Shown: in pieces, positions 1,896 through 33,351 of the stretch
Layout of the letters: every line of letters begins with the position of its first letter
How positions within the stretch are numbered: position 1 is the stretch's first letter
NCBI GenBank assembly: GCA_028289525.1
Contig: JANQPJ010000239.1
Span: forward strand, 1 to 33,352
DNA length: 33,352 nucleotides
Reading direction: 5' to 3'
Origin: Pirellulales bacterium
GTDB lineage: Bacteria; Planctomycetota; Planctomycetia; Pirellulales; JAGQOS01
The notes under the pieces: generated by a model
Told to the model about the DNA's origin: nothing
Databases searched by the model: none
The model's input: only the letters and a program-made list of their open reading frames with translations
Program-made: the position numbers and the translations under genes

Positions 1896-1914
1896 TGTCC
1901 CCAGTTTGTCCCCA
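1896..1914. repeat. Tandem TGTCCCCA repeats, possible integrase arm sites
   Basis: TGTCCCCA occurs at 1896-1903 and again at 1907-1914, 11 bases apart (one helical turn), between the integrase start and the tRNA 3' end. Closely spaced direct repeats at this place fit arm-type integrase or Xis binding sites. Binding is inferred; only the repeat is seen. Confidence 0.4.
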
Positions 1915-1931
1915 CCTGGCGGTTTGGGCAC

Positions 1932-1966
1932 AAAAAAGGACTTGCAACTGAAAGTCGCAAGTCCTT
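1932..1966 (-). terminator. Terminator downstream of tRNA-Leu
   Basis: Read on the minus strand, AAGGACTTGC (1966-1957) and GCAAGTCCTT (1945-1936) form a perfect 10-bp stem with an 11-base loop, followed by a T run (1937-1932). It lies 14 bases beyond the 3' end of the tRNA and points the same way, so it probably ends the tRNA transcript. Confidence 0.8.
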
Positions 1967-1979
1967 ATCGCTCTTTGAG

Positions 1980-2063
1980 TACCGGACCCCGGACTCGAAC
2001 CGGGACGCCCTTGCGGGCATTGGATTTTGAATCCAACGTGTCTGCCAATTCCACCAGTCCGGC
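1980..2063 (-). tRNA. tRNA-Leu (anticodon CAA)
   Basis: The minus strand folds as a class II tRNA of 84 bases. The acceptor stem GCCGGAC/GTCCGGT closes with a G-U pair. The D arm is of the usual Leu form (GGTGGAATTGGCAGAC). The anticodon stem is TTGGA/TCCAA with loop TTCAAAA, giving anticodon CAA. The long variable arm is GCCC-GCAA-GGGC, and the T arm is CCCGG-TTCGAGT-CCGGG. The discriminator base is A and CCA is not encoded. It decodes UUG. Its 3' half faces the integrase gene and is the probable integration target. Confidence 0.96.
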
Positions 2064-4852: not shown

Positions 4853-5214
4853 GACAACGCGAAATTCAGAAACCAGAAAGATGTCGCTTCGCTAGCGGCC
4901 TTCATCGTCTAGGCCACCTAGGACGGCAGTGCTAAGTCCAATGCATTTTAGCCACAGATTTACACGAATTGAACACGGATTTTCAAGGCCTGGGTGTTTC
5001 TCTGGATGGTTGACAATATGTCAGCTTGGCCATTCTAGAGCAAATTACCAAAATGCGTACCGGTGTTTCGTCGGAAAACCTCGGCGAAAACTAGGTCACG
5101 TCCGCTACGGTAAAAAGCAACTTGCTTTAGATCCTCATTTTTGGAACGACTGACTTTTAAAAAACTTCCTCCTATTGATCAGTTCTGCCGGTAGTGATTG
5201 AGCGACAGACATAG
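4853..5214. other. Intergenic region with dispersed repeats upstream of the polysaccharide locus
   Basis: This 362-base gap separates the minus-strand membrane gene from the long + strand locus, so it should contain the first promoter of the locus; I see no convincing one. It holds AGCCACAGATTTACACG and neighbouring bases (4951-4984), similar to short AC-rich sequences dispersed in many environmental genomes. It also holds the 94-bp repeat copy A (5036-5129) and a family-3 end, TTTTTGGAACGACTGAC, at 5138-5154. No gene is supported. Confidence 0.6.
5036..5129 (-). repeat. 94-bp dispersed repeat, copy A (diverged, inverted)
   Basis: The reverse complement matches copies at 8736-8829 and 33258-33351 over the same 94 bases, best in the core (ACCTAGTTTTCGCCGAGG). 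Both ends keep short inverted termini (TAGAGCAA at one, TTGCTTTA at the other). The hairpin at the 5129 end reads AAAGCAA-C-TTGCTTT. The other copies have AGAGCGA-G-TCGCTCT there, so paired positions changed together. Confidence 0.8.
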
Positions 5215-6417
5215 ATGAAAATCCTCTTTCTCCAAAAACGAATCCTCTTCCCGGTCGATGCCGGCTGGAAGATCCGTACGCTCAATGTGCTCAAACACCT
5301 GGCCCGTTGGCACGAGGTGACTTATCTGTGTAACGTACAGCCGGATGACGAACCATTTCTGAACGAAATGCGGGCATCGGGTGTCCGTTTAGAAACAGTC
5401 CCTTGGAGCGAAACACCGCGCAGCAGCCCACGTTTCTATTTTCAGTTAGCAGCCAACCTGCTCTCGAAATACCCATTCACGGCCTCGAAAGACTATGACC
5501 CGGCGCTCCGGCGTCGGGCTCAGACACTATTGGCCGAGGAGACCTACGACCTATTGATCTGTGATTTTGTGCAAATGGCCCGCAACGCGATTGGGTTGCC
5601 AGTTCGGGCCTCGGTGTTGTTCCAACACAACGTCGAAGCACAAATTTACGAGCGACACGCCCAAAATGCTCGGGGCTGGTTGAAACGCAAGTTCATGGGC
5701 CTTCAGTGGCAAAAGATGAAGCGGTTCGAGGCTGAGGCCGGTCGCCAGTTCGATGCGGTCGTCGCGGTCAGCGAAGCCGACCGACAGCACTATCATGACC
5801 ACTATGATTGGAACCACGCGCACACCATCGACACGGCCGTCGACACGGATTACTTTCAGCCAAACGGAACTGCGGAGACGGCCGACCGCGTGCTGTTCAT
5901 CGGGTCGTTGGATTGGATTCCCAACGAGGATGGCTTGGCCTATTTTGTCGAGCAGGTGTGGCCGCTTGTACGACAGGAGCGACCTCAAGCGGTATTTGAA
6001 ATCGTGGGCCGCAATCCATCGCGTGGTGTAGAGCGGTTGGCTGGGCAGCCCGGTGTCAAACTAATTGGCACCGTTCCCGACGTTCGGCCTCATCTGGCCC
6101 AAGCTACTGTGGTGGTCGTTCCCTTGCTGGTAGGCGGCGGTACGCGGATCAAAATTTTTGAAGCGATGGCGATGCAAAAAGCGGTCGTCAGTACCAGTCT
6201 GGGCGCCGAGGGCTTGGCCGTGGAGTCCGGCAAGCATTTGGTGTTGGCCGATGAGCCGGGAGAGTTTGCCGACGCGGTGGTTCGTTTGTTGCGTGATGAA
6301 GCTGGTCGCCAGGCCATCGCCAGCCAAGCGGCCCAACTTGTCAACCAGCGCTACGGGGCAGAGACCATTGCCAGGCAGTTCGAAGCAATCTGTCAGCAAG
6401 CGGCCCTAGACAAGTAA
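5215..6417 (+). CDS. GT4-type glycosyltransferase, PEP-CTERM/EPS-associated type
   Basis: A 400-residue cytosolic GT-B glycosyltransferase. The N-terminal domain (about 1-190) opens MKILFLQKRILFPVDAGWKI and includes FQHNVE at 137-141. The C-terminal donor-binding domain contains FIGSLDW (228-234), FEIVGR (261-266) and the GT4 signature GGGTRIKIFEAMA (307-319). The overall pattern resembles the sugar transferase family repeatedly found in PEP-CTERM/EpsH-linked exopolysaccharide clusters. It should transfer a nucleotide-activated sugar to a lipid-linked acceptor. It is the first gene of the + strand polysaccharide locus. ATG at 5215 is the only reasonable start; there is no Shine-Dalgarno site. 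Confidence 0.88.
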   Translation: MKILFLQKRILFPVDAGWKIRTLNVLKHLARWHEVTYLCNVQPDDEPFLNEMRASGVRLETVPWSETPRSSPRFYFQLAANLLSKYPFTASKDYDPALRRRAQTLLAEETYDLLICDFVQMARNAIGLPVRASVLFQHNVEAQIYERHAQNARGWLKRKFMGLQWQKMKRFEAEAGRQFDAVVAVSEADRQHYHDHYDWNHAHTIDTAVDTDYFQPNGTAETADRVLFIGSLDWIPNEDGLAYFVEQVWPLVRQERPQAVFEIVGRNPSRGVERLAGQPGVKLIGTVPDVRPHLAQATVVVVPLLVGGGTRIKIFEAMAMQKAVVSTSLGAEGLAVESGKHLVLADEPGEFADAVVRLLRDEAGRQAIASQAAQLVNQRYGAETIARQFEAICQQAALDK

Positions 6418-6725
6418 GTCCTCTCCTGCGAGTGACGTTCATATTTGAAATAAAGAAGTTTTGGCGCATCGTTACTTTTGAGTTGTTCCCTAGCCGCGAC
6501 GCAACGCGTCGTGAGCGCGGCTATAGGGCAAAAAACTGTGACTCAACAACAGGGTTCCAGCCCTGGCAGCGGCGGATGATTGCCACTGGCAGCGAAAATC
6601 AAGGTGCCAACTGGAGGGATTTGCCCGAATATATCGGTTGGTCGTTGTCCAGCGGCCGGGAAATTCAGGTGGAGTTGGGTCAGACGATAGCCAGCAGAGA
6701 GCTGTCGGGTAGAATAAAAGGGATT
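6418..6725. other. Intergenic region with a REP-like repeat
   Basis: A 308-base gap. An open frame runs through it into the next gene from 6432, but it crosses the palindromic repeat at 6488-6528 and shows no protein family, so I treat it as non-coding. A TAGAAT at about 6711-6716 could be a -10 box, but no matching -35 is clear. Confidence 0.55.
6488..6528 (-). repeat. REP-like palindromic repeat, copy 1
   Basis: CCCTAGCCGCGACGCAACG and following bases to CGCGGCTATAGGG form an imperfect palindrome. On the minus strand it matches the element at 17358-17387 and both arms at 24566-24695, sharing CGACGC...GCGTCGCGGCTAGGG. It belongs to the short hairpin family that recurs in the spacers of this locus. 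Confidence 0.75.
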
Positions 6726-7631: not shown

Positions 7632-8738
7632 ATGAATTCGGTGAAGAAAGCCAAACGCTGGCTCATCGAGCGGCTGATCGACGTTTATCACTACGTGTTG
7701 ATTTTTCCGCTGGTTCGGCGGCGCAACCAACTAGACGCCTACACGGTGATATTGCCGGTCATTCCCGAGTTTTACGCGGTGACCGAGTATAATCTACGTT
7801 TTCTCTCGCGCTGTGATTTGTCGAATTGTCACGAAGTGATCGTGATTACCGACTCGCATAAGCATCACGCGGAAAACCGGCGGGTAGTGGCCCGCTATGC
7901 CGACAAAATGAACATTCGGCTGGTCGTCCAGCCGTTTTACCGGCGGCTATTGATGAAAATCCAACGCCGATCGTTCGTCGTCCATACAATGAACTTTATT
8001 ACGGCCATCAAAGAGTCGCGAACCAAGTATGTCTATCTGCACGACGGCGATTTTTTCCTGACGGACGGAGGACACATCGAGCGGATTTTTGCAGAGGGCC
8101 GCCGCGACAAGCTCGATATGCTTTCGACCTATTCGCGACCCTATTCCGACTATGGGTATGCCGACGAGAGTATTGTCTTTCCGGCCACGTTCGAGTTGTT
8201 GATACGCCGCGATTTTATGACCTCGAGCCCGGCCTACAAGATTTTTGCCGGCGAGGTAAACGGTAAATGGCACGGCAATTTTACGAATTATTTTCTCACC
8301 GTGCGGAATGACCGCTGTCGCATGCTCGACACGCCAGGCGGCGACCCTCGGTTCATTGACGACGACGCCGACCGCCTAGGGCCTGACGACCCGATCCCGG
8401 TGGGCCTGCATTTCAAGCATTTGTTCGAGCGTTATTGGAAGTTCCGCGACCAGGGCACTTCGTTCGACGACGGCAAATACACGATGTTCTTTCTCTACAT
8501 GATGACGGTGGCCAATCCAGATTGCGAGCACCAATATTTCCCCAGTATGGATGTCTATTTGAAAAGTGTGAAGCCGGTTTACCGGTCAAACTACTACGGG
8601 GCCTTCGAGCGATATTTTCTGCAATTTATCGCACACGACGCGCTCTCCGACAAGGAACGCGAGATGATGCGGCAAGGGTTTGAGCAACTTCAGGAGGCAA
8701 TCTTGCAAAATGAAAAATCCACTGTGGCGATCAACTAG
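7632..8738 (+). CDS. Probable GT-A-type glycosyltransferase, unrecognised family
   Basis: A 368-residue protein without a signal peptide. Residues about 36-150 look like a nucleotide-sugar-binding GT-A core: AYTVILPVIPEF, then EVIVITDSH and KYVYLHDGDFFLTDGG. The last holds a DxD-like Asp138-Gly-Asp140 at the end of a beta strand. The second half is rich in aromatic and charged residues (VGLHFKHLFERYWKFRDQG) and could bind an acceptor. AAGGGGG lies right before the ATG at 7632, one of the best Shine-Dalgarno sites here. It probably forms a unit with the CDP-alcohol enzyme 18 bases upstream. Its TAG stop (8736-8738) is the first triplet of the 94-bp repeat that follows. Confidence 0.65.
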   Translation: MNSVKKAKRWLIERLIDVYHYVLIFPLVRRRNQLDAYTVILPVIPEFYAVTEYNLRFLSRCDLSNCHEVIVITDSHKHHAENRRVVARYADKMNIRLVVQPFYRRLLMKIQRRSFVVHTMNFITAIKESRTKYVYLHDGDFFLTDGGHIERIFAEGRRDKLDMLSTYSRPYSDYGYADESIVFPATFELLIRRDFMTSSPAYKIFAGEVNGKWHGNFTNYFLTVRNDRCRMLDTPGGDPRFIDDDADRLGPDDPIPVGLHFKHLFERYWKFRDQGTSFDDGKYTMFFLYMMTVANPDCEHQYFPSMDVYLKSVKPVYRSNYYGAFERYFLQFIAHDALSDKEREMMRQGFEQLQEAILQNEKSTVAIN

Positions 8739-8829
8739 AGCGAGTCGCTCTTGACCGTAGCGGACGACACCTAGTTTTCGCCGAGGTTTTCGGACGAAAT
8801 ACGACTACGAATGATCCGAAATTGCTCTA
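8736..8829 (+). repeat. 94-bp dispersed repeat, copy B
   Basis: It runs from TAGAGCGA to TTGCTCTA (8-bp inverted ends with one mismatch) and begins with the hairpin AGAGCGA-G-TCGCTCT. By eye it differs from copy C (33258-33351) at about 9 of 94 positions. Its first three bases are the stop codon of the preceding gene. No coding potential is seen; it looks like a small non-autonomous mobile or structural element. Confidence 0.85.
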
Positions 8830-8895: not shown

Positions 8896-9765
8896 ATGAC
8901 ACCATCTTCGAATCATGCGACTGAAAAGGTTCGTTGGAAATCGCACTGGGGTGAGGTTGCCCGAGCTGTGAAGCGAGCGATCGTTTCACGTCGCGAAGCC
9001 ACGTTTGTCGGCAAACAATATCGGCTCGCCTATGAAACTCGGCACGTCCGGGAACGGGTTGACTATCGCTTCTTGAAAGAATGTGCCCGTGATAAACAGT
9101 GTGTGATGGACGTCGGCGCGAACGTTGGCGTTACGTCGTTGATTATGTCTGATGCGATTGCCGGGGGCGGAAAGATCTATGCCATCGAGCCATCCGAGGC
9201 TTCGTGCCTCATCGTGCGCGAAAACGTGCTGCTGAACAACGTGGGCAATTCAATCGAGGTGATCAATGCGATCGTCGCCGAGCGGTCCGGCTTGCCGATC
9301 GAGTATCACTGGGATCTAGTTTCATCCCGGGCGTCGATTATGATGGAGCCGCCCTCAGGCATGTCGATCCCGTTGAGCAAAGTGAGCGTTTCGCTCGACG
9401 ACCTGGTCGAGTCGCTCGAGATTCGACCCGACCTGATCAAAATCGACGTGGAAGGCGCTGAGGGCCGCGTGATTGGCGGTCTCGGGCGAGTGCTGCAAGA
9501 AATTCGCCCCATGACGATTGTCGAACTGCATGCCTGGCAGGGAATGACAATCGCGCAGAACGCAGCGGGGATTTTGGAAAATGCTCAGGCGGCCAATTAT
9601 CGCATGACCGACCTGCGGACCAAAAAAGTGGTTGAAGACCCGGCCGTGTTTGGCGATTTGGCTGCCTCGACCGATCAAGTGCAGTCGCGCGTGTGGGTGT
9701 TGCTGTTGCCGGAAGAGATGCCGATGCCAGGCTGGATCGAAGAGTTTGATACGGTGAACTTGTAG
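8896..9765 (+). CDS. FkbM-family SAM-dependent methyltransferase
   Basis: A 289-residue cytosolic methyltransferase. The SAM-binding motif is CVMDVGANVGVTS at about 69-81, followed by KIYAIEPSEAS with its acidic ribose-binding residue. LIKIDVEGAEGRVIGG, typical of FkbM proteins, lies at about 181-196, and TIVELHAWQ closes the Rossmann sheet. FkbM enzymes often O-methylate sugars, and surface-glycan clusters commonly carry one. ATG at 8896 is used; GGAA lies upstream. Spacers of 157 and 64 bases flank it, so it may be transcribed separately. Confidence 0.88.
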   Translation: MTPSSNHATEKVRWKSHWGEVARAVKRAIVSRREATFVGKQYRLAYETRHVRERVDYRFLKECARDKQCVMDVGANVGVTSLIMSDAIAGGGKIYAIEPSEASCLIVRENVLLNNVGNSIEVINAIVAERSGLPIEYHWDLVSSRASIMMEPPSGMSIPLSKVSVSLDDLVESLEIRPDLIKIDVEGAEGRVIGGLGRVLQEIRPMTIVELHAWQGMTIAQNAAGILENAQAANYRMTDLRTKKVVEDPAVFGDLAASTDQVQSRVWVLLLPEEMPMPGWIEEFDTVNL

Positions 9766-15988: not shown

Positions 15989-16048
15989 GGTTGTTAGGGG
16001 TTGGTTCTTGGTTTGGGGTTTATTCAGATCAACCAACGACTAACAACC
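15989..16048. repeat. Imperfect inverted repeat in the spacer before the nucleotide-sugar dehydrogenase
   Basis: GGTTGTTAG (15989-15997) pairs with CTAACAACC (16040-16048), and inside them GTTGGTT (16000-16006) pairs with AACCAAC (16031-16037). This leaves an internal two-base mismatch and a 24-base loop. The sequence is strongly biased (GT-rich then AC-rich). It may be a leader hairpin or a weak terminator without a T run. Function unknown. Confidence 0.6.
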
Positions 16049-16092
16049 AAAAACCAACAACTACTTTCACCACCCACCATGAAAGATTCACC

Positions 16093-17385
16093 GTGAAACG
16101 AGTCGCCGTGTTTGGCGTAGGTTATGTAGGCTGTGTGACGGCCGCCTGCCTGAGTCGCGATGGGCATCAGGTCATCGGCGTCGATGTCGATGCCGGGAAA
16201 GTCGAGGCGCTGCAAGCTGGCCAATCGCCGGTCTCCGAACCAGGGCTCGAGGACTTGGTCGCCGAGCAGGTGGCCGCCGGTTCGCTTCGGGCAACGATCG
16301 ATCTGGAAGCGGCGGTTGCCGAGTCGGAGATTGCGCTGGTGACCGTAGGAACCCCTTCGGCACGCGATGGCTCGGTGTCGGCCGCGGCGGTCGAAAGCGT
16401 GGTCCAGCAGATTGGTCAGCAATTGCACGGCGCCGAACGTGACTATTCGGTCGTGATCCGATCAACCTTGCTGCCAGGCTTGCTCGAAGAACGCTTGGCA
16501 CCGTTGCTCGAGGAGGCCTCTGGCAGACGCTTGGGAGACTCGTTGCGGCTGCTCAACAATCCTGAGTTCTTGCGCGAGAGTTCGGCACTCAAAGATTACG
16601 ACGCGCCGCCGTATGTGGTGGTTGGTGCCTATCAAGACGCGCCGGCCGACGATGTACTGGCCCTTTATCAAAACATACCGGCCGAACAGATCGTGACCGA
16701 TACACGAACTGCGTCGCTGGTCAAATATGCCTGCAACGCCTTTCACGCGGTGAAGGTGGCGTTTGCCAACGAGATTGGCAGTTTGGCGAAAGGACTTTCG
16801 GCCGATGGTCGACAGGTCATGGAGATTGTGTGCCGTGATACCAAGCTGAATGTCTCGCCGGCCTATTTGAGGCCTGGCTTTGCTTTTGGCGGTTCCTGTT
16901 TGCCGAAGGATTTGCGAGCCTTGATGCGGTTTGCCCAACGCGAGGCGATCGAAGTCAGCTTGCTCAATTCGATCTTGCCTTCGAATCAGGCTCACCTGCA
17001 ACGGGCGGTCGAATTGGTCAAGAGCACCGGATGCCGCAAAATTGGGCTGGTCGGTCTGTCGTTCAAGGCCGGGACCGACGATCTGCGTGAGAGTCCGTTT
17101 GTTTCTCTGGCACAAATCTTGATCGGCGAAGGGTGTGATCTGAAGATTTATGATCCTGGCGTTTCGCTGCCCCGGCTCAAGGGCCGTAACTTGGCCTACA
17201 TCGACCAACGGTTGCCGCATTTGGCCGCCTTGCTGGTCGATTCGCCGGAAGAGATCGACCAGCACGCCGAGCTGGTGATTTTGGGCACCTCGGTTGCCGA
17301 TGGATTTAGCTGGGATCAAGGGAAACAGGTAGTCGATTTGCGGAAAGAGTTGGTGTGCCCCGGCGACACGTCGTGTCGCGGCTAG
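16093..17385 (+). CDS. Nucleotide-sugar dehydrogenase, GDP-mannose 6-dehydrogenase (AlgD)-like
   Basis: A 430-residue enzyme that oxidises an NDP-sugar to the uronic acid in two NAD-dependent steps. The NAD-binding fold starts VAVFGVGYVG (4-13) with DVD at 31-33. NPEFLRESSALKDYDAPP (156-173), Lys211 and Asn215 in KYACNAFHAVKVAF, and Cys269 in GFAFGGSCLPKDLRAL are the expected catalytic features. These stretches resemble GDP-mannose dehydrogenases more than UDP-glucose dehydrogenases, so GDP-mannuronate is the likely product; UDP-glucuronate remains possible. GTG at 16093 is chosen because the frame upstream runs through the inverted repeat. The last residues (CPGDTSCRG) and the TAG stop are encoded by a REP-like repeat. 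Confidence 0.87.
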   Translation: MKRVAVFGVGYVGCVTAACLSRDGHQVIGVDVDAGKVEALQAGQSPVSEPGLEDLVAEQVAAGSLRATIDLEAAVAESEIALVTVGTPSARDGSVSAAAVESVVQQIGQQLHGAERDYSVVIRSTLLPGLLEERLAPLLEEASGRRLGDSLRLLNNPEFLRESSALKDYDAPPYVVVGAYQDAPADDVLALYQNIPAEQIVTDTRTASLVKYACNAFHAVKVAFANEIGSLAKGLSADGRQVMEIVCRDTKLNVSPAYLRPGFAFGGSCLPKDLRALMRFAQREAIEVSLLNSILPSNQAHLQRAVELVKSTGCRKIGLVGLSFKAGTDDLRESPFVSLAQILIGEGCDLKIYDPGVSLPRLKGRNLAYIDQRLPHLAALLVDSPEEIDQHAELVILGTSVADGFSWDQGKQVVDLRKELVCPGDTSCRG

Positions 17386-17387
17386 GG
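17358..17387 (+). repeat. REP-like palindromic repeat, copy 2, overlapping a gene end
   Basis: It differs from the element at 24572-24600 at two of 29 positions. The two changes are on opposite sides of the stem: CGACACG-T-CGTGTCG here, CGACGCG-T-CGCGTCG there. The hairpin is therefore preserved by a compensating pair. It contains the last codons and stop of the dehydrogenase gene. Confidence 0.8.
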
Positions 17388-17435
17388 ATTTTTGAGCAAT
17401 GGGGCACATTCGAGAACTTCGCGTCGAGTCAAGCG

Positions 17436-18626: not shown

Positions 18627-19766
18627 ATGGCCAAACTTCGTCTCACCTATCCCACGTTTCAGCAGCCATCTCAGGTCACCTTTGGCTCGGGGTCGGTTCG
18701 CACGTTGGTCCAGGCAAGCGACATGGACGACGTGTGCTGGTTTGTCAGCGGTTCAGCCCCGGTTCGAGCAATCTTCGAACGCCAACTGGCCAAGGCCGGC
18801 CGTTCGCTCGCCCAGGTTCAGGCGATTTTCAAGCCGCCTGGCGAGCCCGATCAGGCAATGATCGACCAGGGGGCCGCTTTTTTGAAAGAGCATGCTGCCC
18901 GACGCATCGTTGGCCTTGGCGGCGGTTCGGTGTTGGATTGGTGCCGGCTGTCCTGGGCACGTTCCGCTGGGCTGCTGGACGACGACCATGCTCGCAACGT
19001 TACGGTTCCGGCCGAGATGAAGACGCCTGAGCTTTGGCTGGCGCCGACTACCTGCGCTACCGGGGCCGAAGCGGCCAGTGTGGCCGTGTATCTTGACCAA
19101 GGTGAAAAACAACCAGTCGTGTGCGACGCTTTTCTAGCCCGTCGTGTGGTGCTTGATGGCCAGTTTCTGGCCGACTTGTCAACCGGCGAACTAGCCAACT
19201 TGTTGGCCGATGCGGTGAGCCATGCGGTCGAGGCGTTCATTTCGATCGTGCCCAACTACCTGGCCAAGGAAGCGGCCGCGTCGGCCTTGGGGTTGATTTT
19301 GGAATCCTACCCGGCCGCACCAGAAGTGTCTCGCAACGAACGGCTGTTAGAGGCGGCCTACCTGGCTGGGCTGGCGGCCAGCCATTGCAGCGTGGGCGTG
19401 ATTCACGCCTTTGCACATAGCGTGGCCCGTTGGCAAGTGTCACACGGGCATGCCAACGCGCTCGGTTTGTTGCCTGGCATCGAAGCCAATGCCGAGACAC
19501 CGGCCCTGGCGCGTCTCACTCGACGGCTCGGCCTGGACGGAGTGTCGGCACTTGTCGAACGGCTCCGGCCGTTGGCCCAAACGGCCATCGGGCATGGACA
19601 GCATGACCAGCTACGTTCGGCCCTCGCGGCGGCCGATCGGTGTGCCGAACTGCGGGCGGCGATGAGCAAAGATGTTTGTCTGCGAACCTGTCCCACGACG
19701 CTGGATGAGACGGCGCTCGACGCCTACCTGGCCCGGGTTCGGGCAGGCATGGAGGCAGCCGCATGA
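18627..19766 (+). CDS. Iron-containing alcohol dehydrogenase (RfbM-like role)
   Basis: A 379-residue group III alcohol dehydrogenase. The NAD-binding loop is GLGGGSVLDWCR (96-107), and PTTCATGAEA (140-149) contacts the nucleotide. Metal ligands are Asp195 and His199 in DAVSHAVEA, His260 in VIHAFAH and His273 in SHGHANAL, so all four are present. It should interconvert an aldehyde and an alcohol. It opens a cassette of six overlapping genes, all concerned with acyl activation and reduction, and is the obvious candidate to act on the aldehyde made by the LuxC-like enzyme. ATG at 18627 is chosen over an upstream start at 18507, which would translate a repeat. The stop overlaps the next start (ATGA). 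Confidence 0.88.
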   Translation: MAKLRLTYPTFQQPSQVTFGSGSVRTLVQASDMDDVCWFVSGSAPVRAIFERQLAKAGRSLAQVQAIFKPPGEPDQAMIDQGAAFLKEHAARRIVGLGGGSVLDWCRLSWARSAGLLDDDHARNVTVPAEMKTPELWLAPTTCATGAEAASVAVYLDQGEKQPVVCDAFLARRVVLDGQFLADLSTGELANLLADAVSHAVEAFISIVPNYLAKEAAASALGLILESYPAAPEVSRNERLLEAAYLAGLAASHCSVGVIHAFAHSVARWQVSHGHANALGLLPGIEANAETPALARLTRRLGLDGVSALVERLRPLAQTAIGHGQHDQLRSALAAADRCAELRAAMSKDVCLRTCPTTLDETALDAYLARVRAGMEAAA

Positions 19767-21190
19767 AGATGTTGTTGGATGCCCTCGACACGGCCGAGCC
19801 GAGCCGGTTGGCCCTAGTTGACCGGCATGAACAAGTAACCTACGACGAGTTGCGTCGCCAGGTCGGAAAGATCGCGGCGGTGTTCTATGGAAAATATGGT
19901 GACGGACAGTTTTTAGTCCTGAGAGCAGACAACCACGTGCGGTTTGTCGTCTCGCTATTGGGCATCATGGCCAGCGGCAACACGCCAGTTCCGGTAGCGC
20001 ACGACTTACCAGACGAAGACATCGAGTACATCGTCAGTAAGAGCCAAGCGGTCGGAGTGATCGAGCCGCTCGCGGTCGAGGCCTACGAAACCTCCACGCC
20101 GGAAGATCATCGTCGGCCAGATTGTCCGGCGATCGTGATGTTCACTTCCGGCACGACCGGCTATCCCAAGGGCGTGATTATTTCTCACGCCAATCTCCGC
20201 CACTCGTGTCAGACGATTGCCGACTATTTGCACTATCGTGAGTTTCCTAGTGCGGCGGTGGTGTTGCCGTTGCACTACAGCTATGCGTTGCTTTCTCAGG
20301 TATGTTGTCAGTTGTCAATCGGCGGCACGGTTAGTCTGTTCGAGAATTTTCGCAACCCGATCAAATTTGCCCGACAGGTGACCGAGCAACAATTGCAGAC
20401 GTTTTGCGGAGTGCCGTCCACGTATCAGGCGCTGACCACGCTGCACAGCCTTTCGCCGTTGGAGTTGCCGACGGTGCGAGTTTTGTGTTCGGCCGGGGCG
20501 GCCATGAATCATGCTCGGCTGCGTGAAATTCAGACGATTTTTCCCAACGCCATGTTTTTCAACAACTATGGGATGACCGAGGCAGCCCCACGGATCGCTT
20601 ACATTCGAGATGACGACCCGCGATTCGGAGAGCCCACTTGTGGCAAGCCGATGGCGGGGGTTGAAATCAAGGTGGTCGATTCGGAAACGCATCGAACCGT
20701 TCCTGAGGGCGAACGTGGCGTGCTTGTGGTTAAGGGCCCCAACATCACGAGCGGCTATCTGAACGATCCCGAGTTGACTGCTGCCGCTTTTACCGACGAT
20801 GGGTATTTGATTTCGAACGACTTGGCCTATTTGGATCAAGGGTATTTGTTTATTTGTGGCCGGAACGACGATGTGTTCAACGTGGCTGGCGAAAAAGTGG
20901 CCCCGCTGGAAATCGAGCGGTCGTTGAACCACTTGCCAGAGGTCGACATGTCGGCCGTGACTGGGATTGCCGATGAGCAACGCGGCATGGTGCCGGTGGC
21001 TTTTGTGAAGCTGAAGTCGCCTGTCGCCAGAGACCAGTTGATTGCAGGCCTTGATGGCCACTTGCCAGCGGTGAAAATTCCTCAGCGTTATTTTGAAGTG
21101 CGCGAGTTTCCCATGACTGCCAACGGGAAACTACGACGCCATGTGCTTTCGGTTGACGACGATTCTTACGTGGTCCGTGAAATTGATTGA
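19763..21190 (+). CDS. AMP-forming acyl ligase, ANL superfamily (RfbL-like role)
   Basis: A 475-residue adenylating enzyme. Core motifs are in order: MFTSGTTGYPKG (126-137, P-loop), NNYGMTEAAP (267-276), Asp353 in SNDLAYLDQGYL, GRNDDVFNVAGEKVAP (366-381, hinge) and the catalytic Lys456 in TANGKLRR. It activates a carboxylic acid as acyl-AMP and transfers it to CoA or, more likely here, to the ACP at 23546. It is somewhat shorter than fatty acyl-CoA ligases (about 500-550), which fits acyl-ACP or small-acid ligases. The ATG overlaps the dehydrogenase stop by four bases. Confidence 0.9.
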   Translation: MKMLLDALDTAEPSRLALVDRHEQVTYDELRRQVGKIAAVFYGKYGDGQFLVLRADNHVRFVVSLLGIMASGNTPVPVAHDLPDEDIEYIVSKSQAVGVIEPLAVEAYETSTPEDHRRPDCPAIVMFTSGTTGYPKGVIISHANLRHSCQTIADYLHYREFPSAAVVLPLHYSYALLSQVCCQLSIGGTVSLFENFRNPIKFARQVTEQQLQTFCGVPSTYQALTTLHSLSPLELPTVRVLCSAGAAMNHARLREIQTIFPNAMFFNNYGMTEAAPRIAYIRDDDPRFGEPTCGKPMAGVEIKVVDSETHRTVPEGERGVLVVKGPNITSGYLNDPELTAAAFTDDGYLISNDLAYLDQGYLFICGRNDDVFNVAGEKVAPLEIERSLNHLPEVDMSAVTGIADEQRGMVPVAFVKLKSPVARDQLIAGLDGHLPAVKIPQRYFEVREFPMTANGKLRRHVLSVDDDSYVVREID

Positions 21191-22271
21191 ACCGTTTACC
21201 ACCGATGTTGGGCCGTTTGCCATGGCTCCCGAAGAGAAACAGGCATTTCTCAGCGAGCGGCTCGCTGCGCTCGTCGAGCATCATCATGCCCGTTGTGCGC
21301 CATACGCCAGATTGGTGGACGACTGGCGCGGCCGCACGACGTCCGGCTCGTTCTCGGTCGAGAGTTGCCCTTACGTTCCAGTAACGGCTTTCAAAAACTA
21401 CGACCTGCGGTCAACCGACGAGAGTGGTACCACCCTGCAATCGTCGGCCACCACCTCGGCCGTGGCGTCCAAAATTTTTGCCGACAAAGCGACTAAAAAA
21501 CGCCAGGCCCTCTCGGCCAACAAAATTTTGACCGATTTTGTCGGCAGCGAAAAACGTCCGTATCTGGTGTTCGATCTCGAAGCGACCGTGCGGGGAGCCG
21601 GCGCGATGAGCGCTCGGGCAGCAGCGATCTTAGGGCTCGCCCACTTGGCCACGGAATTTTTGTTCGTGATGCGCGAAGAAAAGGGACAATTGCGAATTGA
21701 TCGCGATGCTCTCGAACATGCCATCGAGGTGATCGGCGACGGGCCGTTTCTATCATATGGATTTACGTATATTCTCTATCAGGCTCATCGCGAGTTGGCC
21801 GAGTTGGGCATCACGTTGCCGAGGGCCCATCCCGATTCTCGTTTTCTCCACAGCGGCGGTTGGAAGCGTCTGGTGGCCCTGGCGGTCGACAAGCCGACGT
21901 TCAATCGCACGATTTCCGAACCGTGGCAGTTGGAGCCAGCCAGCGTGGTCGATTTTTATGGCGTGATCGAGCAGGCTGGCGTTCCCTATCCCGACTGCTC
22001 GGCCGGCTACAAGCACGCGCCCTATTGGGCCGAGGTTGTAATTCGCCAAAACGATTCGATGCAGCCGACCAAAACCGGCGAGACCGGGCTGATTCAGTTG
22101 ATCAACTGTCTGCCGTTGTCGGCTCCCAACCACTCGGTGTTGACCGAAGACTTGGGCCAGATTGTGCTGGACGACGGTTGTGCCTGTGGCCGGCGAGGCA
22201 AGGCGTTTATTTTTAAAGGAAGGGCGCCACGGTCGGAAACCCGTGGCTGTAGCGATGTCCCGCGCCGTTGA
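21177..22271 (+). CDS. LuxE-like acyl-protein synthetase/acyltransferase
   Basis: About 364 residues, belonging to the LuxE/PaaK-like ANL branch. Visible features are SYGFTYILYQ, LHSGGWKRL, DFYGVIEQAG (in the place of the YGxTE motif) and the C-terminal CACGRRGKAFIFKGR with Cys335 and Cys337, then SETRGCSD. In Vibrio LuxE a C-terminal cysteine carries the acyl group to the reductase LuxC; Cys335 or Cys337 is the likely equivalent. The start is uncertain: GTG at 21177 overlaps the ligase gene and keeps the family's N-terminal helix, while ATG at 21222 would drop about 15 residues. The end overlaps luxC-like by 17 bases. Confidence 0.87.
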   Translation: MKLIEPFTTDVGPFAMAPEEKQAFLSERLAALVEHHHARCAPYARLVDDWRGRTTSGSFSVESCPYVPVTAFKNYDLRSTDESGTTLQSSATTSAVASKIFADKATKKRQALSANKILTDFVGSEKRPYLVFDLEATVRGAGAMSARAAAILGLAHLATEFLFVMREEKGQLRIDRDALEHAIEVIGDGPFLSYGFTYILYQAHRELAELGITLPRAHPDSRFLHSGGWKRLVALAVDKPTFNRTISEPWQLEPASVVDFYGVIEQAGVPYPDCSAGYKHAPYWAEVVIRQNDSMQPTKTGETGLIQLINCLPLSAPNHSVLTEDLGQIVLDDGCACGRRGKAFIFKGRAPRSETRGCSDVPRR

Positions 22272-23511
22272 CATCTTATATCCTGCCGAGGCCGATGGCA
22301 CAGAACTGCCAGAGCTGATCGCGGCTGCGCAAACAGCCGGTCAGGCGTTGCTCGACGTGCCGTTGGCCGATCGGTTATCGGCGTTCGACACGTTGTCCGA
22401 TCAATTGCTCGAAGGCCGCTTGCGCCAGGTGCCGGGGATTGCGTTTCTGGCCGCCTTCTTGCGTTCGACCAATCTGCGAACGCTGATTGAACGCGAATTG
22501 ACGTTTCCCGACGCACTCAGGCAGTTTGTGCCGATCGGCGAGCGGAAGAGTGCTCGAGTTTTGCCGCAAGGTTTGGTGGCCCATTGGGTGGCCGGCAACG
22601 TGCCTTTGTTGGGCATGTTTTCCTGGGCCTTGAGCGCCGTGGTTGGTAATGCCAACGTGATTCGCCTGAGTTCAAAGCAGGAAGATGTGGTCAGCCCGTT
22701 GATTGAGTTGTTGGCCCAATCGTCCGCGGTCGGACGACAATTGGCCGCAGCGACGTTGCTGGTTTGTTTTGATCGAGAACATTCCGACGCCCACGTGCAG
22801 TTGAGCCAAGCGGCCGATGTGCGGATTGCCTGGGGAGGGCAAGAGGCAATCGAGACGATTCGCGCATTGCCCTGTCGCTGGGAGTGCGAGGACATCGCGC
22901 TCGGACCCAGGGTTAGTTATGCGGTAATCGACCCCACGGTGGCGACCGACGCAAGCATCAACCGGTTGGCCACCGACGCGGTCTATTTCGACCAACTGGC
23001 TTGCAGCTCGCCACAGTATCTCTTCTTGCGAGACCGGGGTGAACAGGCCGAAATCGAAGGGTTTGTCGAGCGATTTACGGCCGCGTTCGAGCGCCAAGCC
23101 GTCGCGATTCCGCGTCATCCGCTCGATTTTTCCGAAAGTTACCAGATCGAACTCGACCGCACTCGGGCATTGCTCGAAGGCGGCCGTTTGGCGCGCGACT
23201 CTCAGACCGAGTGGACGATTGCCCTCGTGGACCGCCCGAACGACGAGATTCGCTGCGCCAATCGTTTTGTTCAGATCATTCCTTTCCAGCGGTTTGAGAC
23301 GGTTTACGGTTGTATTCCCAGGAATATTCAGACGATAATTACCTTACTTGGCGCGGATGAGGCCGAGCAGTTTTCCGAACAGGCTGCCCGACGGGGCGTG
23401 TGCCGGTTGCCGCGTCCAGGCGAAGGAAACCTGTTTGAAACCCCCTGGGATGGCGTGCCGTTGGTGGCGCGATTGACACGCTGGACGTTGCGTAGCGACA
23501 ACCGGCGCTGA
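22255..23511 (+). CDS. LuxC-like acyl-CoA/acyl-protein reductase
   Basis: A 418-residue protein of the LuxC family in the aldehyde dehydrogenase superfamily. LVAHWVAGNVPLLGMFSW (107-124) and NANVIRLSS (132-140) form the nucleotide-binding region, and WGGQEAI follows. The catalytic Cys250 sits in FDQLACSSPQYLF, the family signature. It reduces an activated acyl group to the aldehyde with NAD(P)H, taking it from the LuxE-like partner encoded just upstream. ATG at 22255 lies inside the end of the luxE-like gene, so the two are translationally coupled. No luxA, luxB or luxD genes are present. Confidence 0.9.
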   Translation: MSRAVDILYPAEADGTELPELIAAAQTAGQALLDVPLADRLSAFDTLSDQLLEGRLRQVPGIAFLAAFLRSTNLRTLIERELTFPDALRQFVPIGERKSARVLPQGLVAHWVAGNVPLLGMFSWALSAVVGNANVIRLSSKQEDVVSPLIELLAQSSAVGRQLAAATLLVCFDREHSDAHVQLSQAADVRIAWGGQEAIETIRALPCRWECEDIALGPRVSYAVIDPTVATDASINRLATDAVYFDQLACSSPQYLFLRDRGEQAEIEGFVERFTAAFERQAVAIPRHPLDFSESYQIELDRTRALLEGGRLARDSQTEWTIALVDRPNDEIRCANRFVQIIPFQRFETVYGCIPRNIQTIITLLGADEAEQFSEQAARRGVCRLPRPGEGNLFETPWDGVPLVARLTRWTLRSDNRR

Positions 23512-23545
23512 TCCCACGCTCAGGCAACATGGAGTTGAAGGATCT

Positions 23546-23791
23546 GTGGAGAATCTGAAACAGCAATTGCTGGAACTAATCGCCGACTTGTTCAAATGTG
23601 ACGTGGCGACGCTCAGCGACGAGACTGGACCAGGCGACTTGCCGGCTTGGGACTCGTTGGGCCACGTGGCTTTGATGGCACGAGTGCAGGAGAAGTTTGG
23701 ACGGCACGTGCCGGTCGAAGACGCCATTGAAGTCGAGTCGATTGCCGATCTGTTGGAAATCCTGGAACGTCTGGTCAGCGAGTCTTCGTGA
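23546..23791 (+). CDS. Acyl carrier protein (RfbK-like role)
   Basis: An 81-residue acyl carrier protein. The phosphopantetheine attachment Ser37 is in WDSLGH, with the typical flanking helices (QLLELIADLF before, EVESIADLLEIL after). It carries a thioester-bound acyl chain, probably loaded by the ligase at 19763 and worked on by the SDR and the LuxE/LuxC pair. The GTG start at 23546 has GAAGGA four bases upstream. The stop overlaps the GTG start of the SDR gene by four bases (GTGA). Confidence 0.93.
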   Translation: MENLKQQLLELIADLFKCDVATLSDETGPGDLPAWDSLGHVALMARVQEKFGRHVPVEDAIEVESIADLLEILERLVSESS

Positions 23792-24546
23792 ACATCTCAG
23801 GCCAAGATATCATCATTACGGGGGCTGCCTCGGGCATCGGCCTGGCGATGACCAGACATCTGGCTTCGCTAGACGCTCGTGTCTGGGCAATCGACCGCGA
23901 GCGGGCGTTGCTCGATCAAGCAGTCGCCGACTCGCGTGAATCGACGTCGGCGATCCGTTGGGTTCAATGCGACGTAGGCGACGAGCGGCAAGTCATCGAG
24001 ACGGTTGCCTCGATCGAAGAAGAGTCGACCGGTATCGACGTCTTGGTCAACAACGCGGCCGTACTGCGCGACCAAACCTTGGTTTCGAAGCTTGGCCGTC
24101 GGATTAAAAAACATGCACTCGCCGATTGGGAAGAGACGTTGCGCAGCAATCTGACCGGCACCTTTTTGATGGGCCGCGAAGTGGCCGAGGCGATGGTCCG
24201 CGCCAAGCGGCCAGGCGTGATTGTCAACTTTTCGTCGGTCTCGCGCGCCGGCAACCCAGGCCAGAGCGCCTATGCGGCGACCAAAGCCGCCGTGGATGCC
24301 CTGACCGTTACCTGGTCGCAGGAATTGGCCGTCTATCGAATTCGCGTGGCGGCGATTGCCCCCGGGTTTGTCGAAACCGGCATGACCCAAGCGATTCCAG
24401 AGCTATTCCTCGATCGGATTCGCGAAAAGACTCCGCTCAAGCGCTTTGGCACTCTGGACGAGTTCTCGCACACCATTCAGTATGTGATTGAGAACGATTA
24501 TGTGAACGGACGCACGCTTGAGGTCGACGGGGGACTGCGGTTTTAG
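23788..24546 (+). CDS. Short-chain dehydrogenase/reductase, FabG-like
   Basis: A 252-residue classical SDR. TGAASGIG at 11-18 binds the nucleotide and NNAAV is at 88-92. The catalytic residues are Asn121, Ser150 (in NFSSVS), Tyr162 and Lys166 (YAATK). The end is the usual NGRTLEVDGGLRF. An acidic residue (Asp36) after the second strand suggests NAD rather than NADP. It probably reduces a 3-oxoacyl-ACP or related keto group to the hydroxy form. It starts with GTG overlapping the ACP stop and is the last gene of the cassette; a REPIN-like repeat follows. Confidence 0.92.
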   Translation: MNISGQDIIITGAASGIGLAMTRHLASLDARVWAIDRERALLDQAVADSRESTSAIRWVQCDVGDERQVIETVASIEEESTGIDVLVNNAAVLRDQTLVSKLGRRIKKHALADWEETLRSNLTGTFLMGREVAEAMVRAKRPGVIVNFSSVSRAGNPGQSAYAATKAAVDALTVTWSQELAVYRIRVAAIAPGFVETGMTQAIPELFLDRIREKTPLKRFGTLDEFSHTIQYVIENDYVNGRTLEVDGGLRF

Positions 24547-24565: not shown

Positions 24566-24695
24566 AGGGTTCCCGGCGACGCGTCGCGTCGCGGCTAGGG
24601 GCTTCTAGTAATTCGAGTTTGTTTCAACTGCAGCAGAACACGTACAATTGAATGATGAATCCCTAGCCGCGACGCGACGCGTCGCCGGGAACCCT
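24566..24695. repeat. REPIN-like element: perfect 35-bp inverted repeat
   Basis: The 35 bases at 24566-24600 are repeated exactly as reverse complement at 24661-24695, around a 60-base centre with no open frame. Each arm contains CGACGCG-T-CGCGTCG, itself a small hairpin, then CGGCTAGGG. Single arms of the same kind occur at 6488-6528 and 17358-17387. Two REP units in inverted order is the layout of REPINs, which RAYT transposases move in other bacteria. It fills most of the gap between the acyl cassette and the next gene and could act as a terminator-like hairpin. Confidence 0.85.
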
Positions 24696-24706
24696 TGACT
24701 GCCTTC

Positions 24707-25828
24707 ATGTCTGAAAACGCCACCCACGATTCCACGAACCCGAAAAGCGATCTGCGCGGTCTGCTCCGGTTCCAGCCTGAGTTGGCCGAAGAAATTTATG
24801 CCTTTCAGCGAGCTGCCTACCCACATCGCGACGACGCCCTGGTCGAGCCACGTTGGAATTGGATGTTCTTAGAGCCGGCTCGCCGTTTAGGGATCGACCC
24901 CTACGTTTGGATTTATCGCCGCAAGGGCGAGATCGTCGCCCATCAAGGAGCCATTGGAGTTCAATTCAAACTCGGCAACACCACGCACACCACCGGCTGG
25001 TTCGTCGAGACGATGGCCTTGGAGTCGGTCCGCGGCAAGTCGATCGGCCCCATGGTGATTCAAAAGGCGCTGGAGGATTTGCCGTTCAACCTTTCGCTAG
25101 GACAGACTGAGACCATGCGGTCGTTGCAGTTTGCGCTTGGCTGGGAACAGGTAGCCCCGTTGCAAACCTATGCTCTGATGCTCAAGCCGAGCGCGGTATT
25201 GCGGCACAAGATCAACAACCCCTTGGCCCGTCTGGCCGCTGGTTGGGCGATTCAAGGGCGTCGTCAGTTGAGCAACATGCAGGCAAGACCGACCGCTCGC
25301 GGAGAGACCACGGTCAGGCAAATCGAACGCTATGACGAACGGCACGACGTGCTCTGGCGTGAGGTGGCGGATGAATTCCCTTGCACGGTGATCCGCGATG
25401 CGGCGTTTTTAAATTGGAAGTTCGTCGACCAGCCTGGGCAAGAATTCGTGCGACTGGAGGTGGCCAGCGACGGCAAGCCGGTAGGGCTGGCCGTGTTGAC
25501 CGTGCGCGAGCCAGACGAGGCGTACCGGTATCGTCGGGCATTGTTGCTCGATGTGGTTGTCTCGCCGAGCGATCCCAACGCGGTTTGGCGTTTACTGGAA
25601 GTGGTTGAGCAGACAAGCCGGCAGCTGCAGGCTGAGATGCTGTTTTTCGACCTGTTGAATCGGCCTTTGGAGAAGCAGTTGTTGCGTTATGGATTTCTGG
25701 CGCGCGAGCAAGCCCGCGTGCTATTGCTGTCGACCAAGACGCTCTCGGCGGCCGATCAGCAAACTGTGATGAACCCCGATCATTGGTTGATTACCCGAGC
25801 CGACTCGGACATCGATCGCCCTTGGTAA
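24707..25828 (+). CDS. GNAT-type acetyl/acyltransferase-like protein
   Basis: A 373-residue protein with features of two GNAT-like halves. The first (about 12-165) has WIYRRKGEIVAHQGAIGVQF, WFVETMALESVRGKSIG (acetyl-CoA-binding-type turn) and SLGQTETMRSLQFALGW. The second (about 205-350) has ATSDGKPVG-like GKPVGLAVLTVRE and LLLDVVVSPSDPNAVWRLL. Proteins of this layout are common in exopolysaccharide clusters. It could place the acyl group made by the preceding cassette on a sugar amine, but that is inference. ATG at 24707 starts 12 bases after the REPIN-like element. Confidence 0.7.
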   Translation: MSENATHDSTNPKSDLRGLLRFQPELAEEIYAFQRAAYPHRDDALVEPRWNWMFLEPARRLGIDPYVWIYRRKGEIVAHQGAIGVQFKLGNTTHTTGWFVETMALESVRGKSIGPMVIQKALEDLPFNLSLGQTETMRSLQFALGWEQVAPLQTYALMLKPSAVLRHKINNPLARLAAGWAIQGRRQLSNMQARPTARGETTVRQIERYDERHDVLWREVADEFPCTVIRDAAFLNWKFVDQPGQEFVRLEVASDGKPVGLAVLTVREPDEAYRYRRALLLDVVVSPSDPNAVWRLLEVVEQTSRQLQAEMLFFDLLNRPLEKQLLRYGFLAREQARVLLLSTKTLSAADQQTVMNPDHWLITRADSDIDRPW

Positions 25829-26679: not shown

Positions 26680-26706
26680 TCAGACAATGCTAGGGATTTG
26701 TGTTTG

Positions 26707-27741
26707 ATGTCGATTACGATCGTTGAAAACGAAACTAGTCAGCTGCCAGTTGCTGTTGGGGAGCAAGTGCTTCATGGGCTGTCGGAATATCCGCGCGATC
26801 GGCGATGGTTGCCGGCGGTTTGCCAGGGGCTACGTCTTCAGCCTTGGATGTTGGAAGCGCGACGCGATGGCCAAGTGGTGGGCGAGTTGCCGTTGGCTTT
26901 TGTCAAAAGCCGGCTGTTCGGACGTTTTCTGGTCAGTCTGCCGTATGTCAATTGGGCCGGCGTGCTGGGCGATGATGAAAGCGTGACCGCGATGGTCGAT
27001 CGGGCTTGCCAGCTAGCGGACCGGCTGGATGTGCGATATCTGGAGCTACGGCACGAGGTTGAGATTCAACATCCGAAGTTAACCGACCAACTTACTACCA
27101 AGTGCCATATGCGGCTGCCGCTGTCAGCGACCAGCGAAGCGTTGTGGAAGAGTTTTAGCCCCAAGGTTCGCAATCAGGTTCGCAAAGGCGAGAAACAAGC
27201 GTTCGAGATTGCCTGGGGACGTGAGGATCTGTTGCCGGAGTTTTATGAGGTGTTCAGTCGCCGCATGCGCGAGCTAGGCACACCGGTCTACGGCAAACGT
27301 CTGTTCACCAGTATTCTAAAGCAGTTTCCAGACAAAGCTGAGTTTTGTGTGTTGCGCGACGGGCGGCAAGTCGTCGGTGGAGCACTTCTGGTGCATGGAG
27401 AGAAGATATCCGAGGTTCCCAGTGCTAGCACGCTGACCTCCTACAATCCGAAAAACCCAAACATGCTGATGTACTGGCAGTTGCTACAGCGGGCGATCGA
27501 GCGTGGTCAAACGGTGTTTGATTTTGGGCGTTGTAGCCTTGAAAGCCCCACTCATCGGTTCAAGAAACAATGGGGAGCGAAGGCCTCGCCAGCGGTTTGG
27601 CAGTATTACCTGCGGCATGGCCAGATGGATGACATGCGGCCAGACAACAGCCGTTATCGACGAAAAGTCGCCGTTTGGCAGCGTTTGCCGCTCTGGTTGA
27701 CCAAATTGGCTGGCCCCTGGATCGTGCGTGGGATTCCCTGA
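26707..27741 (+). CDS. FemAB-like protein of the PEP-CTERM/exopolysaccharide type
   Basis: A 344-residue protein made of two GNAT-fold halves. Features typical of the PEP-CTERM-associated FemAB family are visible: WLPAVCQGLRLQPWML, KSFSPKVRNQVRKGEK, TPVYGKRLFTSILKQFP, SEVPSASTLTSYN, NMLMYWQLLQRAIERG, VFDFGRCSLES and a GPWIVRGIP end. True FemAB enzymes move amino acids from aminoacyl-tRNA to peptidoglycan; the role of this branch is not known to me, but it marks exopolysaccharide loci. No exosortase is in the window. ATG at 26707 is chosen from the family's N-terminus. Confidence 0.88.
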   Translation: MSITIVENETSQLPVAVGEQVLHGLSEYPRDRRWLPAVCQGLRLQPWMLEARRDGQVVGELPLAFVKSRLFGRFLVSLPYVNWAGVLGDDESVTAMVDRACQLADRLDVRYLELRHEVEIQHPKLTDQLTTKCHMRLPLSATSEALWKSFSPKVRNQVRKGEKQAFEIAWGREDLLPEFYEVFSRRMRELGTPVYGKRLFTSILKQFPDKAEFCVLRDGRQVVGGALLVHGEKISEVPSASTLTSYNPKNPNMLMYWQLLQRAIERGQTVFDFGRCSLESPTHRFKKQWGAKASPAVWQYYLRHGQMDDMRPDNSRYRRKVAVWQRLPLWLTKLAGPWIVRGIP

Positions 27742-33250: not shown

Positions 33251-33257
33251 TCTTCTC

Positions 33258-33351
33258 TAGAGCGAGTCGCTCTTGACCATAGCGGACGCGACCTAGTTTT
33301 TGCCGGGATTTTCCGACGAAACACGACTACGAATTATCCGAAATTGCTCTA
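33258..33351 (+). repeat. 94-bp dispersed repeat, copy C
   Basis: It runs from TAGAGCGA to TTGCTCTA, like copy B at 8736-8829, with about 9 differences by eye. It is bounded by C on the left and G on the right, so each end reads CTAG. It is complete one base before the window ends. Confidence 0.85.

What the first reader, a model, noticed from the sequence alone, without database searches (positions are those of the whole stretch)
18627..24546. Luciferase-free lux-type acyl reductase cassette inside a polysaccharide locus, resembling rfbKLMN of Vibrio cholerae O1
Six genes overlap or nearly abut: Fe-ADH, AMP-ligase, LuxE-like, LuxC-like, ACP and SDR. All key residues are visible: D195/H199/H260/H273 in the ADH, K456 in the ligase, C335/C337 in LuxE, C250 in LuxC, S37 in the ACP, and Y162/K166 in the SDR. 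Established comparison, from memory: in V. cholerae O1 an ACP (RfbK), acyl ligase (RfbL), Fe-ADH (RfbM) and LuxC/LuxE protein (RfbN) were proposed to make the 3-deoxy-L-glycero-tetronate that acylates perosamine. Here the RfbN-type functions are two separate overlapping genes, an SDR is added, and the RfbO-like acetyltransferase is replaced at most by GNAT/FemAB proteins downstream. Inference: the cassette makes a hydroxyacyl or acyl-alcohol decoration for a planctomycete surface glycan.
Basis: partly seen in the sequence, partly recalled or inferred. Interest (0 to 1): 0.75.

Follow-up and report, generated by a model that had tools for sequence, protein, structure and literature searches.

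The report
Six-gene hydroxyacyl-making cassette for exopolysaccharide
A planctomycete exopolysaccharide locus carries a six-gene set that probably turns a small acid into an activated hydroxy-acid and hangs it on a sugar, a relative of the cholera O1 antigen pathway that proves to be widespread in bacteria and whose product can now be tested.

Summary
The six genes are real and intact: Fe-ADH, AMP-ligase, LuxE, LuxC, ACP and SDR, 18627-24546, tightly packed. All named residues check out except LuxE: the invariant cysteine is C370 (counted from 21141), not C335/C337. The cassette sits in an exosortase-type exopolysaccharide locus. Trees of LuxE and LuxC place it with Fe-ADH cassettes, near RfbN and far from the lux operon, so the rfbKLMN comparison holds as kinship of mechanism. 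Two stated differences are not unusual: separate LuxE and LuxC is the common state, and an ACP-SDR-ligase-LuxE-LuxC set is already described in Aeromonas and enterobacterial flagellin glycosylation islands. What is unusual is having both Fe-ADH and SDR; the same order recurs in two Acidobacteriota genomes and one Woeseiaceae genome. The GNAT gene that follows belongs to the unit in three of the four; its nearest free relative is fused behind the ACP of a polyketide synthase. Elsewhere LuxC is followed by a dehydrogenase with the malate-type arginine, pointing to malate as substrate. Best reading: acid to aldehyde to hydroxy-acid, loaded on ACP, transferred to an amino sugar; a 2,4-dihydroxybutyryl-type group is likeliest. 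New variant of a known kind.

The parts
18627..19766 (+). Fe-containing alcohol dehydrogenase (RfbM-like role), metal residues D195/H199/H260/H273 intact
   Evidence: Pfam; residues; 49% identical to L043 and 29% to the RfbM-type protein of L154
19763..21190 (+). AMP-forming acyl ligase (RfbL-like role), K456 intact
   Evidence: Pfam; residues; 62% to L043, 27% to L154
21141..22271 (+). LuxE-type acyl-protein synthetase; invariant cysteine C370 (numbered from 21141)
   Evidence: Pfam; alignment with lux-operon LuxE; nearest solved structure 7xc6 LuxE, E 3e-17
22255..23511 (+). LuxC-type acyl reductase; acyl cysteine C250
   Evidence: Pfam; nearest solved structure 7xc6 LuxC, E 1e-14
23546..23791 (+). 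acyl carrier protein, S37 attachment site
   Evidence: Pfam
23788..24546 (+). FabG-like short-chain dehydrogenase, Y162/K166
   Evidence: Pfam; NCBIfam PRK08217 281 bits against a cut-off of 298
24695..25828 (+). GNAT-type protein, predicted acyl-ACP-dependent N-acyltransferase; likely start is ATG 24707
   Evidence: adjacent homologues in L043 and L201; fusion KS-AT-KR-ACP-GNAT in L222; Pfam GNAT hit weak
24566..24695 (.). palindromic genome-wide repeat (35-nt arms, 60-nt spacer) lying between SDR and GNAT
   Evidence: about 203 copies of its 25-mer in the genome, 0 in the reversed control; RNA fold z -11.5
26698..27741 (+). FemAB-family protein of the XrtA/PEP-CTERM polysaccharide system
   Evidence: TIGR03019 331.6 bits against a cut-off of 260.35
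15991..17385 (+). nucleotide-sugar dehydrogenase (UDP-glucose dehydrogenase family), locus context
   Evidence: TIGR03026 366.7 bits against a cut-off of 189.8
5215..6417 (+). glycosyltransferase resembling the XrtA-system family TIGR03087, locus context
   Evidence: 242.5 bits, below the cut-off of 316.65

Best explanation
The cassette makes a short hydroxy-acid, loads it on its own carrier protein and passes it to an amino sugar of an exosortase-type exopolysaccharide. Proposed steps: LuxE activates a small acid with ATP and hands it through C370 to C250 of LuxC. LuxC reduces it to the aldehyde. The Fe-ADH reduces the aldehyde to the alcohol. The AMP-ligase activates the remaining carboxyl and loads it on the ACP. 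The adjacent GNAT protein (possibly the FemAB protein) transfers the acyl group to an amine. The likeliest product is a 2,4-dihydroxybutyryl (3-deoxytetronyl) type group made from malate (this specific product about 0.4). The SDR either sets a hydroxyl on the acid, as the malate dehydrogenase may do in other cassettes, or is a second aldehyde reductase. Shown: gene content, residues, kinship, locus context and the carrier-protein fusion of the GNAT. Inferred: every reaction, the substrate and the acceptor.
For: Kinship with RfbN. RfbL and its neighbours are tied to 3-deoxy-L-glycero-tetronate, i.e. 2,4-dihydroxybutanoate (PMC3441752, PMC12208996). Five related cassettes carry, directly behind LuxC, a lactate/malate dehydrogenase family protein with Arg at the specificity position (TAGxxR; the Gln102Arg switch is established knowledge, from memory). 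All four six-gene loci lie among polysaccharide genes, with exosortase-system family matches in window, L043, L044 and L201, some of them below the curated cut-off; exosortase is present in the three genomes searched. GNAT adjacency and the PKS ACP-GNAT fusion. A phosphopantetheinyl transferase lies directly upstream of the L043 cassette. ACP, ligase and LuxC accompany LuxE in 64, 79 and 85 of 89 chains.
Against: No substrate has been shown for any protein here. The dehydrogenase clue comes from the SDR-type clade, not from the Fe-ADH grade of the window. Similarity of the window GNAT to the GNATs near rfbKLMN-type sets is weak (hhalign E 0.003, probability 10%). Having both Fe-ADH and SDR means the product need not equal tetronate. 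The window has no sugar aminotransferase; those in the genome lie on other contigs. The ligase matches many acyl-CoA ligase families without specificity.
Confidence: 0.6

Rival explanations
1. The cassette makes a fatty aldehyde or fatty alcohol, as the lux fatty-acid reductase does, for a lipid or wax-like decoration or a lipid-linked sugar.
For: LuxC/LuxE are named fatty-acid reductases and the nearest solved structure is the LuxC-LuxE complex 7xc6. The ligase scores with long-chain acyl-CoA ligases. PMC7874193 reads the Aeromonas cassette as a 'liposugar' pathway.
Against: LuxE and LuxC group far from the lux operon and with RfbN-type proteins. No LuxD-type thioesterase or luciferase in the window. 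A dedicated ACP plus ligase is not needed to make an alcohol. Malate-type dehydrogenases occur next to related cassettes.
Confidence: 0.15
2. The SDR acts as a 3-ketoacyl-ACP reductase and the product is a 3-hydroxyacyl group such as 3-hydroxybutyryl. LuxE/LuxC and Fe-ADH then act on a different end or a different pool.
For: Best SDR family is 3-ketoacyl-ACP reductase, 281 bits against 298. The six-gene SDRs form their own clade.
Against: No ketosynthase is linked to the cassette. In the SDR-type cassettes the SDR is present where the Fe-ADH is missing, which suggests aldehyde reduction. This reading gives no reason for LuxE and LuxC.
Confidence: 0.15
3. The cassette belongs to flagellin glycosylation, like the published ACP-reductase-ligase-luxE-luxC sets, and not to an exopolysaccharide.
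For: Published islands in Aeromonas and Enterobacteriaceae carry the same five families. The genome encodes flagellins.
Against: The window has no flagellar gene. Its neighbours include exosortase-system genes, as in the three other six-gene loci. Relatives occur in genomes where no flagellin was found (G395, G397).
Confidence: 0.1

Closest known systems
Vibrio cholerae O1 rfbKLMN (wbeKLMN) tetronate genes
   Same: ACP, AMP-ligase, Fe-ADH, LuxE and LuxC functions in one compact set in a polysaccharide locus; LuxE/LuxC trees join them in the Fe-ADH grade
   Different: LuxE and LuxC are separate, an SDR is added, order is ADH-ligase-LuxE-LuxC-ACP-SDR, no perosamine genes in the window; identity to L154 proteins only 27-34%
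Flagellin glycosylation island cassette of Aeromonas group II and Enterobacteriaceae (ACP, 3-oxoacyl-ACP reductase, AMP-synthetase, luxE, luxC)
   Same: same five protein families, separate LuxE and LuxC, SDR present (PMC7874193, PMC4875605)
   Different: no Fe-ADH reported; the SDR-type cassettes found here have order ACP-SDR-ligase-LuxE-LuxC and form a clade that excludes the window with strong support; linked to flagellin there
lux operon fatty-acid reductase (luxC, luxE, luxD)
   Same: LuxE-LuxC chemistry; conserved C-terminal LuxE cysteine and LuxC cysteine
   Different: no luciferase or LuxD; has ACP, ligase, Fe-ADH, SDR; separate clade
Exosortase A (XrtA)/PEP-CTERM exopolysaccharide loci
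   Same: FemAB protein above the TIGR03019 cut-off, TIGR03087-like glycosyltransferase, exosortase in the genome
   Different: no paper found here joins LuxE/LuxC with exosortase loci (best 20 of 111 listed)

Membership tests
rfbKLMN tetronate cassette | ACP, AMP-ligase, Fe-ADH, LuxE and LuxC functions together | tested here: met
rfbKLMN tetronate cassette | LuxE and LuxC fused in one protein, order K-L-M-N | tested here: not met
   separate overlapping genes and different order; fused in L153/L154
rfbKLMN tetronate cassette | LuxE/LuxC phylogenetically with RfbN | tested here: inconclusive
   same Fe-ADH grade outside the SDR-type clade, but the nearest kin are Fe-ADH cassettes of other phyla, not RfbN itself
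rfbKLMN tetronate cassette | product is 3-deoxy-L-glycero-tetronate on perosamine | not testable with these tools
   needs glycan chemistry
SDR-type cassette of flagellin glycosylation islands | ACP, SDR, ligase, LuxE, LuxC present | tested here: met
SDR-type cassette of flagellin glycosylation islands | LuxE and LuxC inside the SDR-type clade | tested here: not met
   window lies outside the 84-row LuxE clade (SH-aLRT 100) and the 82-row LuxC clade (100); named Aeromonas island sequences were not themselves in the trees
SDR-type cassette of flagellin glycosylation islands | linked to flagellin or nonulosonate genes | tested here: not met
   no such gene in the window
lux operon fatty-acid reductase | LuxE groups with lux-operon LuxE | tested here: not met
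lux operon fatty-acid reductase | luciferase luxAB and thioesterase luxD alongside | tested here: not met
XrtA/PEP-CTERM exopolysaccharide locus | system-specific marker above curated cut-off in the locus | tested here: met
   TIGR03019 331.6 against 260.35
XrtA/PEP-CTERM exopolysaccharide locus | exosortase encoded in the genome | tested here: met
   G000:C125 E 1e-54; on another contig; subtype not resolved

The most novel reading that the evidence does not exclude
The cassette and its many relatives are a widespread natural route from malate to ACP-bound 2,4-dihydroxybutyrate (or close relatives) for glycan acylation. In the six-gene form a second reductase makes a further variant not yet seen in any glycan. 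The same chemistry would explain the unidentified 102-Da group on Aeromonas flagellin (C4H6O3 = 102.03).
Probability: 0.3. Interest if true: 0.75.

Novelty: new variant of a known kind. Interest (0 to 1): 0.55.

Why it matters
A proposal made for one pathogen's O antigen proves to have relatives in many phyla, including a Sigynarchaeum archaeon, so the chemistry of a large set of unexplained glycan genes becomes testable with one assay. A 2017 paper that built a synthetic malate route to 2,4-dihydroxybutyrate states that no natural pathway to it had been described (PMC5481828); cassettes of this kind are the obvious candidates for one. They also offer a concrete guess, C4H6O3, for the unknown 102-Da moiety on A. 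piscicola flagellin (PMC7874193).

Tried and rejected
A single-sequence LuxC scan of genome contigs found no relative; an alignment of eight LuxE proteins then worked. 'Split LuxE/LuxC plus SDR' as the novelty was rejected because it is common and published. Mutual exclusion of Fe-ADH and SDR is not significant by count (Fisher p 0.49), so I claim only the tree pattern. The AlphaFold model of the GNAT was too poor to search (pLDDT 44.9), so no fold search was run. GNAT as a cassette-specific marker: it belongs to a broad family found in 74 of 396 and 88 of 392 genomes, and only matches below E 1e-100 are cassette-linked or fused. Profile comparison of the window GNAT with the GNATs near rfbKLMN-type sets is suggestive only. 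A paper search for dihydroxybutanoyl on flagellin found none.
Full report
OBSERVATION. All six genes are present at the stated coordinates and on one strand. Spacing is -4, -50, -17, +34 and -4 bases, which suggests one operon. Alignments confirm the catalytic residues named for Fe-ADH, ligase, LuxC, ACP and SDR. The LuxE residues are misassigned: the only cysteine common to all 14 aligned LuxE proteins, lux-operon ones included, is C370 counted from ATG 21141, near the C-terminus. Established knowledge (from memory) puts the acyl site of Photobacterium LuxE at such a C-terminal cysteine.

SURROUNDINGS. The window is a whole contig, C185, of a 4.04-Mb draft genome. Planctomycete origin fits 23 PF07596 matches, with none in 14 control genomes. 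Around the cassette lie glycosyltransferases, methyltransferases, PMT-type membrane proteins and a nucleotide-sugar dehydrogenase. The FemAB protein at 26698-27741 passes the cut-off of the XrtA/PEP-CTERM model TIGR03019, and 5215-6417 resembles TIGR03087 below its cut-off. The genome encodes an exosortase on contig C125; its subtype is unresolved. So the locus is best read as an exosortase-type exopolysaccharide locus.

RELATIVES. An eight-member LuxE alignment found at least 509 related places in GTDB genomes; the best 80 were kept. Own profile HMMs on these and eight other loci gave 89 LuxE-anchored chains: LuxC in 85, ligase in 79, ACP in 64, SDR in 42, Fe-ADH in 9. The commonest order is ACP-SDR-ligase-LuxE-LuxC (23 chains). 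Both Fe-ADH and SDR occur together only in the window, L043 (Acidobacteriota) and L044 (Woeseiaceae), in the same order. A search of 396 genomes of the L043 phylum added L201, again in that order. The 80 loci were chosen for nearness to the window, so these counts are not an unbiased census.

TREES. In LuxE, the window, L043 and L044 form a clade (SH-aLRT 100) inside a set of Fe-ADH cassettes (95); an 84-row SDR-type clade excludes it (100). LuxC agrees on the six-gene clade (99) and on exclusion from an 82-row clade (100). The lux operon lies far away in both. All Fe-ADH cassettes in the LuxE tree, including two rfbKLMN-type sets with a fused 825-aa LuxE-LuxC (L153, L154), lie outside the SDR-type clade. 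These are quick trees with some long branches, and RfbN is not the direct sister of the window. The Fe-ADH tree is weaker but keeps the six-gene trio together (93/99).

WHAT WAS ALREADY KNOWN. PMC7874193 and PMC4875605 describe ACP, 3-oxoacyl-ACP reductase, AMP-synthetase, luxE and luxC as conserved parts of flagellin glycosylation islands. Hence separate LuxE/LuxC and an SDR are not new. PMC7874193 also reports an unidentified 102-Da group on A. piscicola AH-3 flagellin. My arithmetic: a dihydroxybutyryl residue C4H6O3 is 102.03 Da. Only a nominal mass is published there, so this is a prediction, not evidence.

SUBSTRATE CLUES. V. cholerae O1 perosamine carries 3-deoxy-L-glycero-tetronate, and wbeL (rfbL) is needed for normal O antigen (PMC3441752); RfbL is listed with 2,4-dihydroxybutanoic acid as substrate (PMC12208996). 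Independently, in five cassettes (L067, L092, L097, L104, L118) the gene right after LuxC is a lactate/malate dehydrogenase family protein. All five have Arg where lactate dehydrogenases have Gln (TAGxxR), the known malate switch (from memory). These five are in the SDR-type clade, so the extension to the window is an inference.

ACYL TRANSFER. The gene after the SDR, a GNAT-type protein, has adjacent homologues in L043 and L201, where it overlaps the SDR gene. Its nearest relative away from a cassette is fused to the end of a KS-AT-KR-ACP polyketide synthase module, directly behind the ACP (L222). That fusion supports use of ACP-bound acyl groups. L044 has instead a GNAT/FemAB-type protein just upstream. 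In the window SDR and GNAT are separated by a palindromic repeat with about 203 copies of its core in the genome, which accounts for the gap. A phosphopantetheinyl transferase precedes the L043 cassette.

MECHANISM. Acid + ATP on LuxE, thioester to LuxC, NADPH reduction to aldehyde, Fe-ADH to alcohol, ligase to ACP thioester, GNAT to amine. The SDR supplies or alters a hydroxyl, or is a second aldehyde reductase. Each reaction is inferred from family knowledge; gene content, residues, order, kinship and context are shown.

VERDICT. A new variant (Fe-ADH plus SDR plus GNAT) of a known kind of cassette. It works like rfbKLMN but is not filed as a member, since fusion and order differ and the product is untested.

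Noticed in passing
window 24566-24695, also 17359-17390 and 6487-6511: A palindromic repeat whose 25-mer core occurs about 203 times in the genome (0 in the reversed control), sometimes as facing pairs; it folds very stably as RNA (z -11.5). Some predicted gene starts overlap it (24695, 17355), so true starts are probably later.
   Followed up: partly
window 5035-5131 (-), 8735-8829, 33257-33351: A second dispersed repeat of about 95-97 nt with at least 40 copies in the genome; one copy ends the contig, so it probably breaks the assembly.
   Followed up: partly
window 570-2063: A phage-type integrase on the minus strand next to the 3' end of a tRNA-Leu(CAA); an island, if any, would extend left, away from the polysaccharide locus.
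   Followed up: no
window 8896-9765: FkbM-type methyltransferase that also passes the Pfam cut-off for V. cholerae RfbT (29.2 against 27.9), the enzyme that methylates O1 perosamine.
   Followed up: no
L222:1-7662: Acidobacteriota PKS module KS-AT-KR-ACP with a C-terminal GNAT domain close to the window's GNAT, an unusual off-loading arrangement.
   Followed up: partly
L067, L092, L097, L104, L118: L-LDH-family dehydrogenases with a malate-type arginine directly behind LuxC.
   Followed up: yes
L048: An ACP-ligase-Fe-ADH-LuxE-LuxC cassette on a contig assigned to an Asgard archaeon (Candidatus Sigynarchaeum); its LuxE is sister to that of Clostridium cassettes.
   Followed up: no
L153:4384-5373, L154:10636-11703, L097:14270-15367: GNAT proteins sharing a C-terminal GDQDRPN-type tail near rfbKLMN-type and Lachnospiraceae cassettes; the window GNAT ends DSDIDRPW.
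   Followed up: partly
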